A DNA stretch of 64,000 nucleotides, from positions 62,001 to 126,000 of the forward strand of contig JABABD010000020.1 of NCBI GenBank assembly GCA_014238425.1. The letters are read 5' to 3'. The notes under the pieces are model-generated. The model was not told the DNA's origin. It saw only the letters and a program-made list of their open reading frames with translations, and made no database searches. Position numbers and translations under genes: made by a program. Shown here piece after piece: positions 45,104 to 50,640 of this stretch. Source of the stretch: Flavobacteriaceae bacterium (GTDB taxonomy: Bacteria > Bacteroidota > Bacteroidia > Flavobacteriales > Flavobacteriaceae). Positions within the stretch are counted from its first letter, which is position 1; every line of letters begins with the position of its first letter.

Positions 45104-45239
45104 TAAAACCATTGTTACATTCTTAAAATATTACTCAAAGCCAAACAGTAGATTTTGGGATTCTTATACAGAAGTATAAAAACATCATTGATATATTATG
45201 AATATAAACTAATTATTCATGGTAGATAAGGTAGCTGTT

Positions 45240-46106
45240 TTAGTAAGCTGGAAGTTTAGATTTGGTTTTAAAAAGAGATAATGGAAATGTGGCTTTTCCT
45301 TTCATCCAATAATCTTTCGCATGATATTTTTTCATTTCAACCATTGCGGCATGTAGACGATTAGTTCTTCTGGGATTCTCATCTCCAGGCCCTCCAAATT
45401 TACGATACCCAAGTCCTACCGGATGATAGTCGTACCGATCTGCGAACCAAATAGTAATCGTTTTTTTATCTTTACTAATTTCCCAATCTACTCTGTCTAT
45501 ACCTCCAAAGGCATATTTAAAATTTAGTTTTGAATAATAAAATTGTTTTAGAAAAAAACGACCTCGCAGTGAACTACCAATATTAGAACTGAAGACATTT
45601 CTAACATTTGAGTCTTGATAAAAAAGTTCTTTTAGATTTTTAGAGACATTTAGTGTTTTCCCACTACCATTTAAATAATGATTGACATGCTTTAAGGCTA
45701 AAGTCAAATTGAGTCTTCGAAAATAAAGTTTTACCCAATCAACTTCAATCAAGGCAGTATCAATATTACCTGTGCCTGCCAAACTAATTCTTGCACTATT
45801 ATTTGGTTGATGATTATGAGCAGGACGACCAGCAATAAACCACTTTTTTTTTGGTTCATCAACATGTTTACGTCTAGTTCCTCTTTCAGTTTTCTCTAAT
45901 TCAATTCCTTGAACCCTTCCAAGGCCTCGATCAGGGTCATACGGAACTTTATGTACTATTTCTCCTGTATATATAGTTTTAAATATAGTATAACCCTTAT
46001 TATCTATATAAGCAGATTCCACACTGACTTGAACATGAATTCCAGATTCATTGATATAAAAGAATTTTTCGTTTATTTCCCGTATAGTGATTTTTCTCTT
46101 AGGCAT
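45240..46106 (-). CDS. Unassigned 288-aa protein, partner of the 1305-aa protein
   Basis: This 288-residue protein starts three bases after the stop of the 1305-residue gene and is surely co-transcribed with it. No signal peptide or membrane helix is visible. The N-terminal part (1-110) is basic and beta-rich. The C-terminal half contains LALKHVNHYLNGSGKTLNVS, then FGGIDRVDWEISKDKKTI, then FADRYDYHP with two Arg and an AKDYWMKGKA end. This layout (helix plus GSG loop, a DRYDxHP strand, and an AKxYxxxG end) recalls the terminal domains of some secreted toxins and lipid II-degrading colicin M-type proteins, but I am not sure of the match. No family can be named with confidence. Confidence 0.7.
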   Translation of the reverse strand: MPKRKITIREINEKFFYINESGIHVQVSVESAYIDNKGYTIFKTIYTGEIVHKVPYDPDRGLGRVQGIELEKTERGTRRKHVDEPKKKWFIAGRPAHNHQPNNSARISLAGTGNIDTALIEVDWVKLYFRRLNLTLALKHVNHYLNGSGKTLNVSKNLKELFYQDSNVRNVFSSNIGSSLRGRFFLKQFYYSKLNFKYAFGGIDRVDWEISKDKKTITIWFADRYDYHPVGLGYRKFGGPGDENPRRTNRLHAAMVEMKKYHAKDYWMKGKATFPLSLFKTKSKLPAY

Positions 46107-46109
46107 TAA

Positions 46110-49100
46110 TTATTCATTAACATTAATGTTCTTAGCTCCACTTACTTTTATTATTTTTTCTATATCCCCATCCTCATAATCCTTATTCAAAACCCTAGCA
46201 GACTTCCTTAAATTCTCAATTTGTGCTTCACGTACTTCTTCTTGTACTTTTAAAACATCCATGGCTCTGTGTTTTAATTTAAAGTCTTCTAATAAGGCAT
46301 GTTTGCCTGGCAATGCTTCTATATACAGTTGGCCAGTTGGCACTACAATAGTTTCATCTTTTATAACTGGGTTTGCTAAACGCGCAGTAAGAATTTCTGA
46401 TACTCTCTCCGCTAATTCCTTATGTTCTGGTATGCCTTTTATTTGTACTTGAATCTCTTTGAGGTCTTCAGTAGAAATCTCATTGTCAAAATCAGGATCT
46501 TGAATACCTAAATATTCATTCACATAATCTTTCATCATGAAGTCTGTAATATATGTACATTCTTTAAGAGGAAAGATGGCATAATTTCCTTTAAAACCAA
46601 GTAAGTTATCAATATCTGCAACTTCATGAAGTCTTCTTGAGAAGTCAACATCATTTGGTTTGGGATAGCCGACTAACCAATGTAAATCTGATATAGGATA
46701 ACCTATATTTCGAAAATAATCAGCACTGTTATTCCTGTCATTTTGAGTGATAGTAACATCTTTAGGTTTAGGCATTGGAGCTACTTTATCATATAACCTA
46801 AAAAACCGTTGGTCTGGTGGTTCATGTTCCCAAATACCTTGCATGTAGTACAGAATGTTTTGTTTGACGTGAATTCGCAATTGATTAATTAAATTACGCT
46901 TGGTGTATATTTTAGTAGTAATAGCCATCATCTGGTTTTTGGCTTTTTCTAGAGTATTGCTTTCAGAAGCTAATTCTTCACCTGTAACACCTAATTCTTC
47001 TCGTACCTGATTTATTCTAGAATCTAATGCCTTACGTTCAGCTTCATAAAATTCAGAGTCGTATTGTCCTTCTAATTCACTTCCAGCATTATTGAATTCA
47101 GAGAAACTCTGAGCGGCTTGAAATGGATTTATTAAAGCCCCTAAAAATGCATTTGTTTTAGTGCTATCCCTTTTTCTTTGTTCAAAATCAACAATATTTT
47201 CGTTATTAGTTGCAGTATTAAGTTTGGACTGTAATCTTGACCTTAAAGACATTAAACTAGATACGTTTGCTGATATTTCATTGACCATTTCTTTTTGCTG
47301 ATGATAATGTCCCTTGGCTGCTTCGTAATTAATTTCATCTCCTATAAATCCTTCCCTTAAATAATCTAAAGCTTCATGAAAAGAGTCATCTAGTAAAATA
47401 CGTCTCAAAATCCATTCATGAGTTAATAACCAATCTTCATCAATTTCATGTGGAGCGGGAACATCAAAAGCAACCATGATTATAGGTGTAAGCTTGTGTA
47501 GGTTCTCGGATACAATAAATTGACGTTCTAATTCATAAAAAAGATAAGTAACTGTTATTTCATTATTAGGATTTAAAATTTCTCCAGACGTACTTTCTTC
47601 GTAATCAGATTCTTCCTTTGAAATTATTTCAACAGAGCGTTCATTTTTAAATTCATTGGCGGCTTTTCTTGTTGATTCTCTTATTCCTTTTTTCTTGGCT
47701 GAAGATTCTGAAGATTGATCATTTTTGTATCCAGTAGTAGTTTTTACTCCGCCTTTAGCTACACCTACTTCAAAACCAATACTGCCTTCTACCGTCAAAT
47801 TAAAATTTGTAGCTGTACTCGCTTTGCTAAAAATCTCTGAATGCGCTTTAGTAATGTAGGATGCTTCATCGGTTTGCTTGGACAACGAACTTTCCACTTC
47901 TTTTTGGGATCGTGTCCTTTTTACTTTAAGTTTTTTAGTGAATTTTCTTTTTTCACCAGGTGCAAGAGGTATTGTAGAAACTAAATCTCCAACTTGCCAG
48001 TTAGAAGGAGTCCATTCTTGACGATATGTGGTCATGATTCCGTAATTAACAGAGTTTTTTGCAAACACATGAAATTTGTAGGGTTCTAAAAGTCTTTTAT
48101 TGATGTCATCTATTAACTTACTAACTCTTGTTTTAATACCTTTTGGGTTGTTTAAAATACTTTTAATGGCATTTTTATCGACGTCAAAAGAAGAAAAATA
48201 TGGTTTTAAACTAAACTTAAGAACAGCATAAGCCTTAGCATTATCTGAATTATCGTAGTTAAATTTTTCGTTTAAATAGCTTAAAGAGTTTGTATCAAAA
48301 TAGCCTTTTTGCTTTAATACTTTATCTATGAAACTACCCTTTTGACCGTTTATATCATTATCATTATACACTTTCGATATAGTATCCCCATTGTGTTCAT
48401 GATTTCCTTCACTACTTTTCCATGTATCATTTTGCTTTGATATTATTTCCACATAGTTTTCTTGCGTTTTAGTAAATAATACATCTACCTTTTCTTCGTA
48501 TGATAATTCTATATATCTATCAAGCTCTGTAGTATTTAAAACACTTATTATCTGGTTCTGTTGATTAATGGATAGTAATCGCCAATTCTCCTTTAACTTA
48601 TCAGGATTACTAGAATCTAAAATACCATCTTTCAGATTCAACTTTTGTAATTTTGATGGCATTGGTATGCCTTCTCCAATTAATGCCGACTTTTCATTAA
48701 GAAAAGCAACTATTCTTGTCAGGTTATTTTTTTCTCCATTTAATAATTGTTCTAACTCATTGTATGAATTTCGCAATTCTACATTAAACTTACCTTCTCC
48801 ATTATATTCTTCCAAAACATCAACAATTTGGTTATATGTAGATGTTATGTTTTCAGATATTTTTTCATCTAAAAGTTCAGACCAAACATCCTCAAAAGCA
48901 ATTTGTAAATTATGGAAATCATGAAATGCTTTTTGATTTGCAGCACTAGTGTCTTGATCAAAATCTACTCTAGTTTTAATATTGGCATGTAAAACACTAT
49001 TATCAAGTGTATTCTGAATAGGACCATACACCTCACTTATTTTATCGTTTATGAATTTTGTTTCTTCCCCTTCTTTAATTAATTCTATACCGTTAGATGA

Positions 49101-50027
49101 GTTGAATTGCTTACAAGAATCTGGTTTTGAAGGTTTTTCAGAATCAGTATTTTTTTTATTGATAATTTCATCTAGTATATCTTTAAGTTTATCTTTTCTT
49201 ACTAAGGTCTTTCCTTTAGTTTTTTTATTTAATAGGCCACAATATCTACTATAAGGAATATTAATTTCATTAATTGGGTTAGTACTATCATCAATCCCTA
49301 ACTCTTTTTTGTCTTTATCTGTTAGTATTACTGGCAAAAGAGAAGAATTTTTAAAATCTAAGCGTTCTAACCCTTTAATTATTATGGTTTCTGAAACATC
49401 AATAAATGAGTCTTCTTTGCCCATAAATAAATGACTATCTCTTAGTGCCTTTGGAATTGTTGAAATATTTTTGAATAGAGTATCTGTCTCCTTTTTTCTC
49501 TTTTTTTGTTTTTCAAATTTTTTAGCAATTTTAGGGGTTAAATGAGTTTTTAGAAGTTGCTCTTCTTTTTCATCTACCTCAATACTTTTTAGAATAGTCG
49601 CAACTTTAGTTTCTATATTCTTAGACCCTGAACTTATATTAGATATATCTGGACTAGAAACATTAATTATTAACGCTTCATTTTGTCCACCATTTAGCAA
49701 GGGATAATCAGAAACATAAAGAACTCTATCTTTCAATTCTCTTTCTTTCTCTTCAGGAGCAAGAACGACTACAATAATATCAGGTCTTTTTTCTTCCTTT
49801 TGTGGTGCAAAATCTTTGTAATCATAATTAAACTCGAATGAGCCATCACTTTTCGAGTATGTTGAACCTAATCTTTCAGAACCTTTTTCTTCCAAAAATT
49901 CTAGAATGTTCTTTTTGAGATTTTTTGGGATAGTTAGCTTTCTGTCGGTATCATAAAATAGGACTAATAGGTTTTTTAGACCAGCTCCATTTTTTGCTAT
50001 AATTTTGCCATTGATTGTGTACTCCAT
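46110..50027 (-). CDS. Unassigned 1305-aa multidomain protein with N-terminal TTR-like domain
   Basis: This 1305-residue protein lacks a signal peptide. Residues about 1-125 look like a transthyretin/carboxypeptidase-regulatory beta-sandwich (INGKIIAKNGAGLKNLLV, then YSKSDGSFEFNYDYKDF, then RPDIIVVVLAPEE). Residues about 150-640 are charged, helix-rich and of unknown type. Residues about 660-890 form a central module: TYRQEWTPSNWQVGDL, STIPLAPGEKRKFTKKLKV, then a Ser/Gly-rich EGSIGFEVGVAKGGVKT stretch, then LNPNNEITVTYLFYELERQF. I recall related segments in large uncharacterised actinobacterial proteins. Residues about 910-1050 are coiled coil. It is Lys/Asn/Glu-rich and looks more AT-rich than the Bat genes. 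Function unknown. Confidence 0.75.
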   Translation of the reverse strand: MEYTINGKIIAKNGAGLKNLLVLFYDTDRKLTIPKNLKKNILEFLEEKGSERLGSTYSKSDGSFEFNYDYKDFAPQKEEKRPDIIVVVLAPEEKERELKDRVLYVSDYPLLNGGQNEALIINVSSPDISNISSGSKNIETKVATILKSIEVDEKEEQLLKTHLTPKIAKKFEKQKKRKKETDTLFKNISTIPKALRDSHLFMGKEDSFIDVSETIIIKGLERLDFKNSSLLPVILTDKDKKELGIDDSTNPINEINIPYSRYCGLLNKKTKGKTLVRKDKLKDILDEIINKKNTDSEKPSKPDSCKQFNSSNGIELIKEGEETKFINDKISEVYGPIQNTLDNSVLHANIKTRVDFDQDTSAANQKAFHDFHNLQIAFEDVWSELLDEKISENITSTYNQIVDVLEEYNGEGKFNVELRNSYNELEQLLNGEKNNLTRIVAFLNEKSALIGEGIPMPSKLQKLNLKDGILDSSNPDKLKENWRLLSINQQNQIISVLNTTELDRYIELSYEEKVDVLFTKTQENYVEIISKQNDTWKSSEGNHEHNGDTISKVYNDNDINGQKGSFIDKVLKQKGYFDTNSLSYLNEKFNYDNSDNAKAYAVLKFSLKPYFSSFDVDKNAIKSILNNPKGIKTRVSKLIDDINKRLLEPYKFHVFAKNSVNYGIMTTYRQEWTPSNWQVGDLVSTIPLAPGEKRKFTKKLKVKRTRSQKEVESSLSKQTDEASYITKAHSEIFSKASTATNFNLTVEGSIGFEVGVAKGGVKTTTGYKNDQSSESSAKKKGIRESTRKAANEFKNERSVEIISKEESDYEESTSGEILNPNNEITVTYLFYELERQFIVSENLHKLTPIIMVAFDVPAPHEIDEDWLLTHEWILRRILLDDSFHEALDYLREGFIGDEINYEAAKGHYHQQKEMVNEISANVSSLMSLRSRLQSKLNTATNNENIVDFEQRKRDSTKTNAFLGALINPFQAAQSFSEFNNAGSELEGQYDSEFYEAERKALDSRINQVREELGVTGEELASESNTLEKAKNQMMAITTKIYTKRNLINQLRIHVKQNILYYMQGIWEHEPPDQRFFRLYDKVAPMPKPKDVTITQNDRNNSADYFRNIGYPISDLHWLVGYPKPNDVDFSRRLHEVADIDNLLGFKGNYAIFPLKECTYITDFMMKDYVNEYLGIQDPDFDNEISTEDLKEIQVQIKGIPEHKELAERVSEILTARLANPVIKDETIVVPTGQLYIEALPGKHALLEDFKLKHRAMDVLKVQEEVREAQIENLRKSARVLNKDYEDGDIEKIIKVSGAKNINVNE

Positions 50028-50200
50028 AATTAAATGAATTAGAATAAATAATTACTTTCTCGGGCTGTTAATTACAAAAGGGAGGTTTAACAAAAATATG
50101 TTTCATTTTAAATATATGAGACTGACTAACAGGCAATTAAATAATTACGGGTTAACTCCCTAATTATTAGTTTTAGTTTACCGTCTAGGTTTTGTTGAAG

Positions 50201-50208
50201 CAAATTTA
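50201..50208 (-). promoter_or_regulatory. Promoter -7 box of the 1305-aa gene
   Basis: The minus strand reads TAAATTTG followed by CTTC, an exact TAnnTTTG match, 174 bases before the ATG at 50027. No clear -33 TTTG lies at the right distance, but the CATATGTAACA repeat (50235-50266) lies just upstream. The leader would be long. Confidence 0.45.
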
Positions 50209-50234
50209 GAGATGATGTATAAGACGCCATATCA

Positions 50235-50266
50235 CTATTGTAACAAATGATGCAACATATGTAACA
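50235..50266. repeat. Direct repeat C(A/T)ATnTGTAACA with 21-base period, copy 2
   Basis: CTATTGTAACA (50235-50245) and CATATGTAACA (50256-50266) lie 21 bases apart and match the layout at 31627-31658 over 32 bases. They sit between two divergent -7 boxes (50201-50208 minus, 50313-50320 plus), as expected for a shared operator. Confidence 0.55.
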
Positions 50267-50312
50267 ATTGATGTTTTAAACTTTCTTTAACGCTTTCTTC
50301 AAACCCAAATAG

Positions 50313-50320
50313 TATCTTTG
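50313..50320 (+). promoter_or_regulatory. Promoter -7 box of the 97-aa gene and SulP operon
   Basis: TATCTTTG followed by CGGTC is an exact TAnnTTTG box, 26 bases before the TTG start of the 97-aa gene. The -33 position is only T-rich. Confidence 0.6.
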
Positions 50321-50346
50321 CGGTCAACCATTAAAATCTTAGGACA

Positions 50347-50640
50347 TTGAGAAGCATTGTTTCTGTCTTTTTCTCTTTTATTTTCTTGCTGCTTATTGCT
50401 GCTCCTTCGCTAGTATTAATAGTTGAAGATTCGTTGGACATATCTTTTATCATTGATATAAATGAAGAAGAAAACACAGAGAAAAAATCCAAGAAAAATC
50501 TTGAACTCGATGTTTTTCATAAAAGTGATTTAGTAGAGACTTGTATCAATCCTGAAAACAAGCATATTCCTGAATATTATTTTAGATCATACGGAAAGCT
50601 TTATAAAAAACTACATTCTCCGCCTCCCGAACAGGTGTAA
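50347..50640 (+). CDS. Small exported protein upstream of SulP (97 aa)
   Basis: This is a 97-residue protein with an N-terminal hydrophobic signal or helix (IVSVFFSFIFLLLIAAPSLV) and a charged tail (NEEENTEKKSKKN, then HIPEYYFRSYGKLYKKL). The only suitable start is TTG at 50347, a rare start in this phylum. It lies 26 bases after a -7 box and 63 bases before the SulP gene, in the same direction, so it is probably part of the anion-transport unit. The function is unknown. Confidence 0.65.
   Translation: MRSIVSVFFSFIFLLLIAAPSLVLIVEDSLDISFIIDINEEENTEKKSKKNLELDVFHKSDLVETCINPENKHIPEYYFRSYGKLYKKLHSPPPEQV

What the first reader, a model, noticed from the sequence alone, without database searches (positions are those of the whole stretch)
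45240..50027. Two-gene cassette: 1305-aa multidomain protein plus 288-aa partner with a DRYDxHP-type domain
The pair is isolated between the Bat and SulP operons, has its own promoter region and a three-base gap. The large protein combines a TTR-like N-terminal domain, long helical part, a central module with LAPGEKR and NPNNEITVTY segments, and coiled coil, without a signal peptide. The small one ends in a pattern (GSG loop, DRYDYHP, AKDYWMKG) that recalls toxin or lipid II-cleaving domains. A carrier plus effector, or a cytoplasmic assembly with an enzyme, is possible. I cannot assign either protein to a described system.
Basis: partly seen in the sequence, partly recalled or inferred. Interest (0 to 1): 0.72.

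Follow-up and report, generated by a model that had tools for sequence, protein, structure and literature searches.

The report
Mobile scaffold gene with swappable effector
A flavobacterium has picked up a two-gene cassette in which one conserved giant protein is always followed by a different second protein, in some relatives a toxin-like one, which looks like an unrecorded carrier-and-cargo weapon shared between bacteria and archaea.

Summary
The two ORFs are real, 3 bp apart, and match no curated family. The 1305-aa protein belongs to a rare, patchy, horizontally spread family: two other Flavobacteriaceae, Alphaproteobacteria (Pelagibius, Ciceribacter, Sinorhizobium) and a haloarchaeal plasmid. 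In all eight known carriers a second gene follows within 2-173 bp on the same strand, but its product (288-628 aa) is unrelated from lineage to lineage. In the archaeon and in Sinorhizobium it holds a significant Pre-toxin TG domain. The carrier is also a shortened relative of 1500-2070-aa single-chain proteins that carry peptidase domains (C70, DUF2272, M23) at their own C-terminus. In five relatives of the window organism the Bat-SulP neighbourhood exists without the pair, so the pair is an insertion of about 5.1-5.2 kb. Best reading: a carrier/scaffold with an exchangeable effector encoded in trans, like a split polymorphic toxin without an adjacent immunity gene. The genome also holds a contractile injection system (4 of 5 carrier genomes or plasmids judged do; background about 5-17%), a possible delivery route. 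The activity of the window's own 288-aa partner remains unknown; the lipid II idea is unsupported, and both structure predictions failed.

The parts
46110..50027 (-). Carrier/scaffold gene, 1305 aa, first gene of the pair
   Evidence: full-length relatives at 26-51% identity in 7 other genomes or plasmids
49608..50027 (-). N-terminal TTR/carboxypeptidase-regulatory-like domain (residues 1-140), tentative
   Evidence: conserved in A1; profile matches the N-terminus of a 1073-aa frame with weak TTR-52; no Pfam hit of its own
47487..48071 (-). Central module (residues 653-847: VNYGI..YRQEW..GDLVSTIPLAPGE ... NPNNEITVTYLFYELERQ), shared with ~450-aa and 1500-2070-aa proteins
   Evidence: profile-profile E 2e-11, 8e-9 and 1e-11
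46800..46889 (-). Block 2 (residues 1047-1076, QLRIHVKQNILYYMQGIWEHEPPDQRFF), collinear with LIEHLNSNLEHYNKILWANLDPDRRYMLL of single-chain relatives
   Evidence: weak alone, but collinear
46275..46346 (-). Block 3 (residues 1228-1251, VVPTGQLYIEALPGKHALLEDF), collinear with VPTKGVFMEAIQGNCDACE of single-chain relatives, where it precedes the C-terminal enzyme domains
45240..46106 (-). Partner (candidate effector) gene, 288 aa, ORFan
   Evidence: no homologue (best hits are chance)
45420..45440 (-). DRYDYHP motif (residues 223-229) of the partner
   Evidence: sequence; no family match
45104..50346 (.). Segment holding the insertion: in five relatives the genes on either side (BatE and a ~100-aa ORF upstream of SulP) are 28-96 bp apart

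Best explanation
The pair is a horizontally moving two-gene cassette: a conserved carrier/scaffold (1305 aa) and an exchangeable effector encoded just downstream. The carrier is a split relative of large single-chain proteins in which the same scaffold is fused to C-terminal enzyme domains. Inferred mechanism: the carrier leaves the cell (by an unknown route, or loaded on a contractile injection system), binds the partner through its C-terminal coiled-coil/block-3 region, and presents it to, or moves it into, a non-kin target cell, where the partner acts. Shown: linkage in 8 of 8 carriers, variability of the partner, pre-toxin domains in partners of two lineages, absence of the pair from the same site in relatives, homology to single-chain effector-bearing proteins. 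Inferred: physical binding, secretion, toxicity, target.
For: Eight carriers from Flavobacteriaceae, Alphaproteobacteria and Halobacteria. Each is followed on the same strand by a second gene after 3, 25, 2, 173, 103, 100, 54 or 62 bp. Partners are not homologous between lineages except for the PT-TG stretch of the archaeal and Sinorhizobium ones; the two Sinorhizobium partners are orthologues. Pre-toxin TG (PF14449) reaches 37.1 and 51.0 bits against a cut-off of 23.5. Single-chain relatives carry Peptidase_C70 plus DUF2272 or M23; two others are followed by a patatin or a tyrosinase gene. Empty site in five relatives and lowest GC3 in the window. The carrier tree does not follow the species tree: the same-family G326 carrier groups with Pelagibius, support 0.88. 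Contractile tube genes lie in 4 of 5 carrier genomes or plasmids that could be judged, against 34/199 and 6/115 background.
Against: The window's own partner has no pre-toxin domain, no hydrophobic segment and no recognisable active site. No secretion signal was found. No adjacent immunity gene is recognisable. A tyrosinase or patatin partner is not necessarily a toxin. Carrier genome G326 (99% complete) has no T4_gp19-type tube gene. Both structure predictions had pLDDT 34-42 and are unusable.
Confidence: 0.58

Rival explanations
1. Scaffold plus enzyme, not a weapon: the carrier organises an enzyme (tyrosinase, phospholipase, peptidase or nuclease-like) inside the cell or on its surface for a metabolic or cell-wall task, and the variable partner reflects different tasks.
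For: Neighbours of distant scaffold relatives include a tyrosinase and a patatin, and fused domains include M23; no secretion signal on the carrier.
Against: Pre-toxin TG domains in partners of two lineages; rare, patchy, mobile distribution, three full-length carriers (window, G326, Pelagibius) in about 1,080 genomes searched, is unusual for housekeeping.
Confidence: 0.22
2. Cargo complex of an extracellular contractile injection system (eCIS): carrier and partner are loaded into or onto the eCIS encoded elsewhere in the genome. This is a special case of the best explanation that fixes the delivery route.
For: The window genome has a full eCIS locus (Pvc16_N, sheath, tube, hub, tape measure, two eCIS_core proteins); same-genus G001 and G002 have neither the pair nor an eCIS tube gene; 4 of 5 judged carriers have one. 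eCIS-type systems often lack adjacent immunity genes (PMC3482391).
Against: The pair is not next to the eCIS locus in any genome seen; G326 has no tube gene; small sample, genome size and search bias not controlled; a 1305-aa multidomain protein is large for a tube lumen.
Confidence: 0.25
3. Phage-defence (abortive) system: the carrier senses infection and releases the toxic partner inside the producing cell.
For: No immunity gene; in Psychroserpens a STAND NTPase gene lies 30 bp downstream of the pair; two-gene mobile cassette.
Against: No PADLOC family match for carrier or window partner (LeoBC at E 0.01 for one other partner is not significant); no defence genes seen around the window pair; pre-toxin domains belong to exported toxins.
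Confidence: 0.12
4. The 288-aa partner is a lipid II-cleaving (colicin M-like) toxin, as the DRYDxHP motif suggested.
For: By eye, D-x-Y-D followed by a K-x-Y-x(2)-G stretch in the C-terminal region (resemblance from memory only).
Against: No match to any Pfam model at E up to 10, none in NCBIfam or PDB sequences; as I recall it, the family needs His-Arg some residues after D-x-Y-D, which is absent here.
Confidence: 0.06

Closest known systems
Polymorphic toxin systems (Zhang et al. 2012, PMC3482391)
   Same: Conserved delivery part with variable effector; Pre-toxin TG domain in partners of two lineages; spread by horizontal transfer
   Different: Effector encoded as a separate gene instead of a C-terminal tip; no recognisable immunity gene; no known trafficking domain on the carrier
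VARTIG modules of Thermococcales (PMC8416519)
   Same: Large upstream protein with varying downstream genes, likened by its authors to polymorphic toxins
   Different: VARTIG carrier is built of immunoglobulin domains and limited to Thermococcales; no Ig domain match here
eCIS-associated toxins and eCIS_core (DUF4157) proteins (PMC11297309)
   Same: An eCIS is present in the window genome; effectors often without immunity genes
   Different: Carrier and partner have no eCIS_core domain and are not in the eCIS locus
Two- or three-component toxins of the Tc (ABC) or binary type (own knowledge)
   Same: Large translocator-type protein plus a separate enzymatic component
   Different: No match to any such Pfam model in the carrier; size and domain order differ
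Unnamed flavobacterial 1500-2070-aa scaffold proteins with C70, DUF2272 or M23 domains (found here)
   Same: Central module, block 2 and block 3 in the same order
   Different: Single chain with effector domains fused; carriers end shortly after block 3

Membership tests
Polymorphic toxin system | Conserved carrier part with non-homologous effector parts between lineages | tested here: met
   carriers align full length, partners do not
Polymorphic toxin system | Known toxin or pre-toxin domain in the variable part | tested here: inconclusive
   PT-TG in the archaeal and Sinorhizobium partners; none in the window partner or four others
Polymorphic toxin system | Known trafficking domain or signal (T5SS, T6SS, T7SS, eCIS_core, signal peptide) | tested here: not met
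Polymorphic toxin system | Adjacent immunity gene | tested here: not met
   next gene downstream of the window partner is the opposite-strand Bat operon 136 bp away; no consistent third gene in other loci
Polymorphic toxin system | Toxicity of the variable part | not testable with these tools
   needs expression
Restriction-endonuclease-fold (Tox-REase) effectors | D-[EQ]xK active-site signature on core strands | tested here: inconclusive
   by eye in four partners' C-termini, but a pattern test was not above control (5 of 30 control proteins) and no Pfam match
Colicin M-like lipid II toxin (window partner) | Match to the family model | tested here: not met
   no Pfam family for the C-terminal 156 aa at E up to 10
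eCIS effector | Encoded in or near an eCIS locus, or bearing eCIS_core | tested here: not met
   window pair on contig C4, eCIS on contig C15; no eCIS_core in carrier or partner
Tc (ABC) toxin A component | TcA domains | tested here: not met
   no match in Pfam at E up to 1

The most novel reading that the evidence does not exclude
A previously unrecorded split polymorphic toxin class shared by bacteria and haloarchaea: one carrier scaffold, built on a module not in Pfam, accepts unrelated effectors encoded in trans and delivers them into other cells, through an eCIS or by the carrier itself.
Probability: 0.4. Interest if true: 0.82.

Novelty: new variant of a known kind. Interest (0 to 1): 0.62.

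Why it matters
If the scaffold accepts unrelated effectors in trans, it would be a modular protein-delivery device that works across domains of life, and would give a function to a widespread module that has no curated family. The non-homologous partners would also be a source of new toxin or enzyme domains. The two-gene size makes it directly testable.

Tried and rejected
Structure prediction of the carrier (residues 345-1305 with two relatives) and of the partner alone gave pLDDT 34 and 42, so no fold search was run. Weak Pfam hits (DUF5783 in the carrier; Pox_TAA1, FCD and similar in partners) are below cut-offs and were set aside. Hits of the 288-aa protein in 15 Bacteroidota genomes at E 7e-4 to 0.09: those examined lie in tRNA-lysidine synthases, a histidine kinase and other unrelated ORFs, so chance. 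No carrier in viral contigs or phage records. Pattern test for nuclease motifs did not beat its control. Profile comparison of the whole carrier C-terminus with the single-chain proteins was not significant; only short windows around the two motifs gave E 0.0006-0.0013 against the C70 group, and 0.02-0.03 against the other group, so homology there rests on order and motif, not on score. Centring a genome search on the archaeal record was not possible, so the haloarchaeal spread is unknown.

Full report
Observation. Both ORFs exist as described: 1305 aa (46110-50027, -) and 288 aa (45240-46106, -), 3 bp apart, between the Bat operon and SulP, both of which are on the other strand. Neither gives a significant Pfam, NCBIfam or PADLOC family or a PDB sequence match. 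Promoter-like sites are at the chance level.

Insertion. In five relatives of the family, including two of the same genus, the BatE gene is followed after 96, 38, 63, 58 or 28 bp by a ~100-aa ORF that corresponds to window 50347-50640 (BLAST match in four; by eye in G002), and SulP lies near. In the window these two genes are 5243 bp apart and the space is filled by the pair. Both genes have the lowest GC3 of 49 ORFs. So the unit that moved is just two genes, with no transposase and no third gene at this site.

Carrier family. Full-length relatives of the large protein are rare: G326 of the same family, Psychroserpens and Pelagibius, and the plasmids of Salinirubellus (a haloarchaeon), Ciceribacter, Sinorhizobium terangae and S. 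mexicanum. Searches of 397 family, 395 phylum and 289 Alphaproteobacteria genomes found no other full-length one. Pairwise identities are 24-51% apart from the two Sinorhizobium (97%), and the same-family G326 carrier is no closer to the window protein (32%) than the archaeal (35%) or Pelagibius one (36%); it groups with Pelagibius in the tree, support 0.88. This is a horizontal-transfer pattern.

Partners. Every carrier is followed on the same strand by another gene after 2-173 bp. The partners are 288, 465, 468, 513, 553, 564, 566 and 628 aa. BLAST finds homology only between the two Sinorhizobium orthologues (91%) and, over about 100 aa, between these and the archaeal partner (E about 1e-7). 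That shared stretch is Pfam Pre-toxin TG; pre-toxin domains are a recognised part of polymorphic toxins (PMC3482391). Five of the six longer partner types have a hydrophobic segment (mean KD over 19 residues 1.36-2.02); the Ciceribacter one (1.18) and the window partner (0.8) are weaker. C-termini of four partners look like restriction-endonuclease-type active sites to my eye, but a pattern test did not exceed the control, so I do not claim it. The window's partner is an ORFan.

Scaffold relatives. The central module (residues 653-847) occurs in two further kinds of protein: ~400-465-aa proteins, one of them in the window's own genome beside a glutamyl-tRNA synthetase-like gene, and 1500-2070-aa proteins of Flavobacteriaceae; profile comparison gives E of 1e-11 to 8e-9. 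The long ones also hold, in the same order as the carriers, block 2 (NLEHYNKILWANLDPDRRYMLL against NILYYMQGIWEHEPPDQRFF) and block 3 (VPTKGVFMEAIQG against VPTGQLYIEALPG). The scores for these short blocks are weak alone; order and motif make the case. After block 3 the long proteins go on to Peptidase_C70 and DUF2272, and a related one ends in Peptidase_M23, whereas the carriers end. DUF2272 relatives may include peptidoglycan amidases secreted into competitors (PMC10318531). Other scaffold relatives are followed by a separate patatin or tyrosinase gene. The simplest common account is a scaffold with an effector or enzyme either fused or encoded next door.

Delivery. The window genome holds an extracellular contractile injection system on another contig (Pvc16_N, sheath, two tube proteins, hub, CIS_TMP, two eCIS_core proteins). 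Psychroserpens, Pelagibius and the Ciceribacter plasmid have tube genes too; G326 does not; the Salinirubellus and Sinorhizobium plasmids do not, and their chromosomes were not available. Background is 34 of 199 in the family and 6 of 115 in Alphaproteobacteria, carriers included. By hand, 4 of 5 under these rates has a probability of about 5e-4, but the sample is tiny and not corrected for genome size or ascertainment, and G326 shows that the link is not obligatory. I treat it as a lead.

Immunity. No third gene is consistently present; downstream of the window partner the next gene is on the other strand. Systems of the contractile (PVC) type often lack adjacent immunity genes, which has been read as aim at distant organisms (PMC3482391). 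Defence by self-killing is the alternative.

Verdict. The function of the window's own small protein, the binding of the two proteins, secretion and target are inferred, not shown.

Noticed in passing
G000 contig C15 about 91-116 kb (L060:11340-20000, L061:1-16400): Complete-looking eCIS locus with two eCIS_core (DUF4157) proteins of 448 and 1383 aa, candidate effectors, and a 1327-aa PKD protein.
   Followed up: partly
L062:8987-10192 (G000 contig C30): 401-aa stand-alone protein with the central module next to a glutamyl-tRNA synthetase-like gene in the window's own genome; relatives of ~450 aa ending in LPTPGIIVKGCLDECDTCE occur across Bacteroidota without a Pfam family.
   Followed up: partly
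L026, L028, L030, L031, L033, L034: Conserved ~2000-aa flavobacterial proteins; Peptidase_C70 plus DUF2272 found in the four scanned (L028, L030, L031, L034).
   Followed up: partly
L024:90-1058 and L027:4597-5805: Tyrosinase and patatin genes directly downstream of scaffold relatives.
   Followed up: partly
L020:10001-10090 and 13 S. medicae plasmids: A 30-codon stretch about 80% identical to carrier residues 1049-1078, in Ensifer canadensis near nif, nol and virB genes: probably a relic of a lost carrier.
   Followed up: no
L021:13542-17201: STAND NTPase (nSTAND3) gene 30 bp downstream of the Psychroserpens pair.
   Followed up: no
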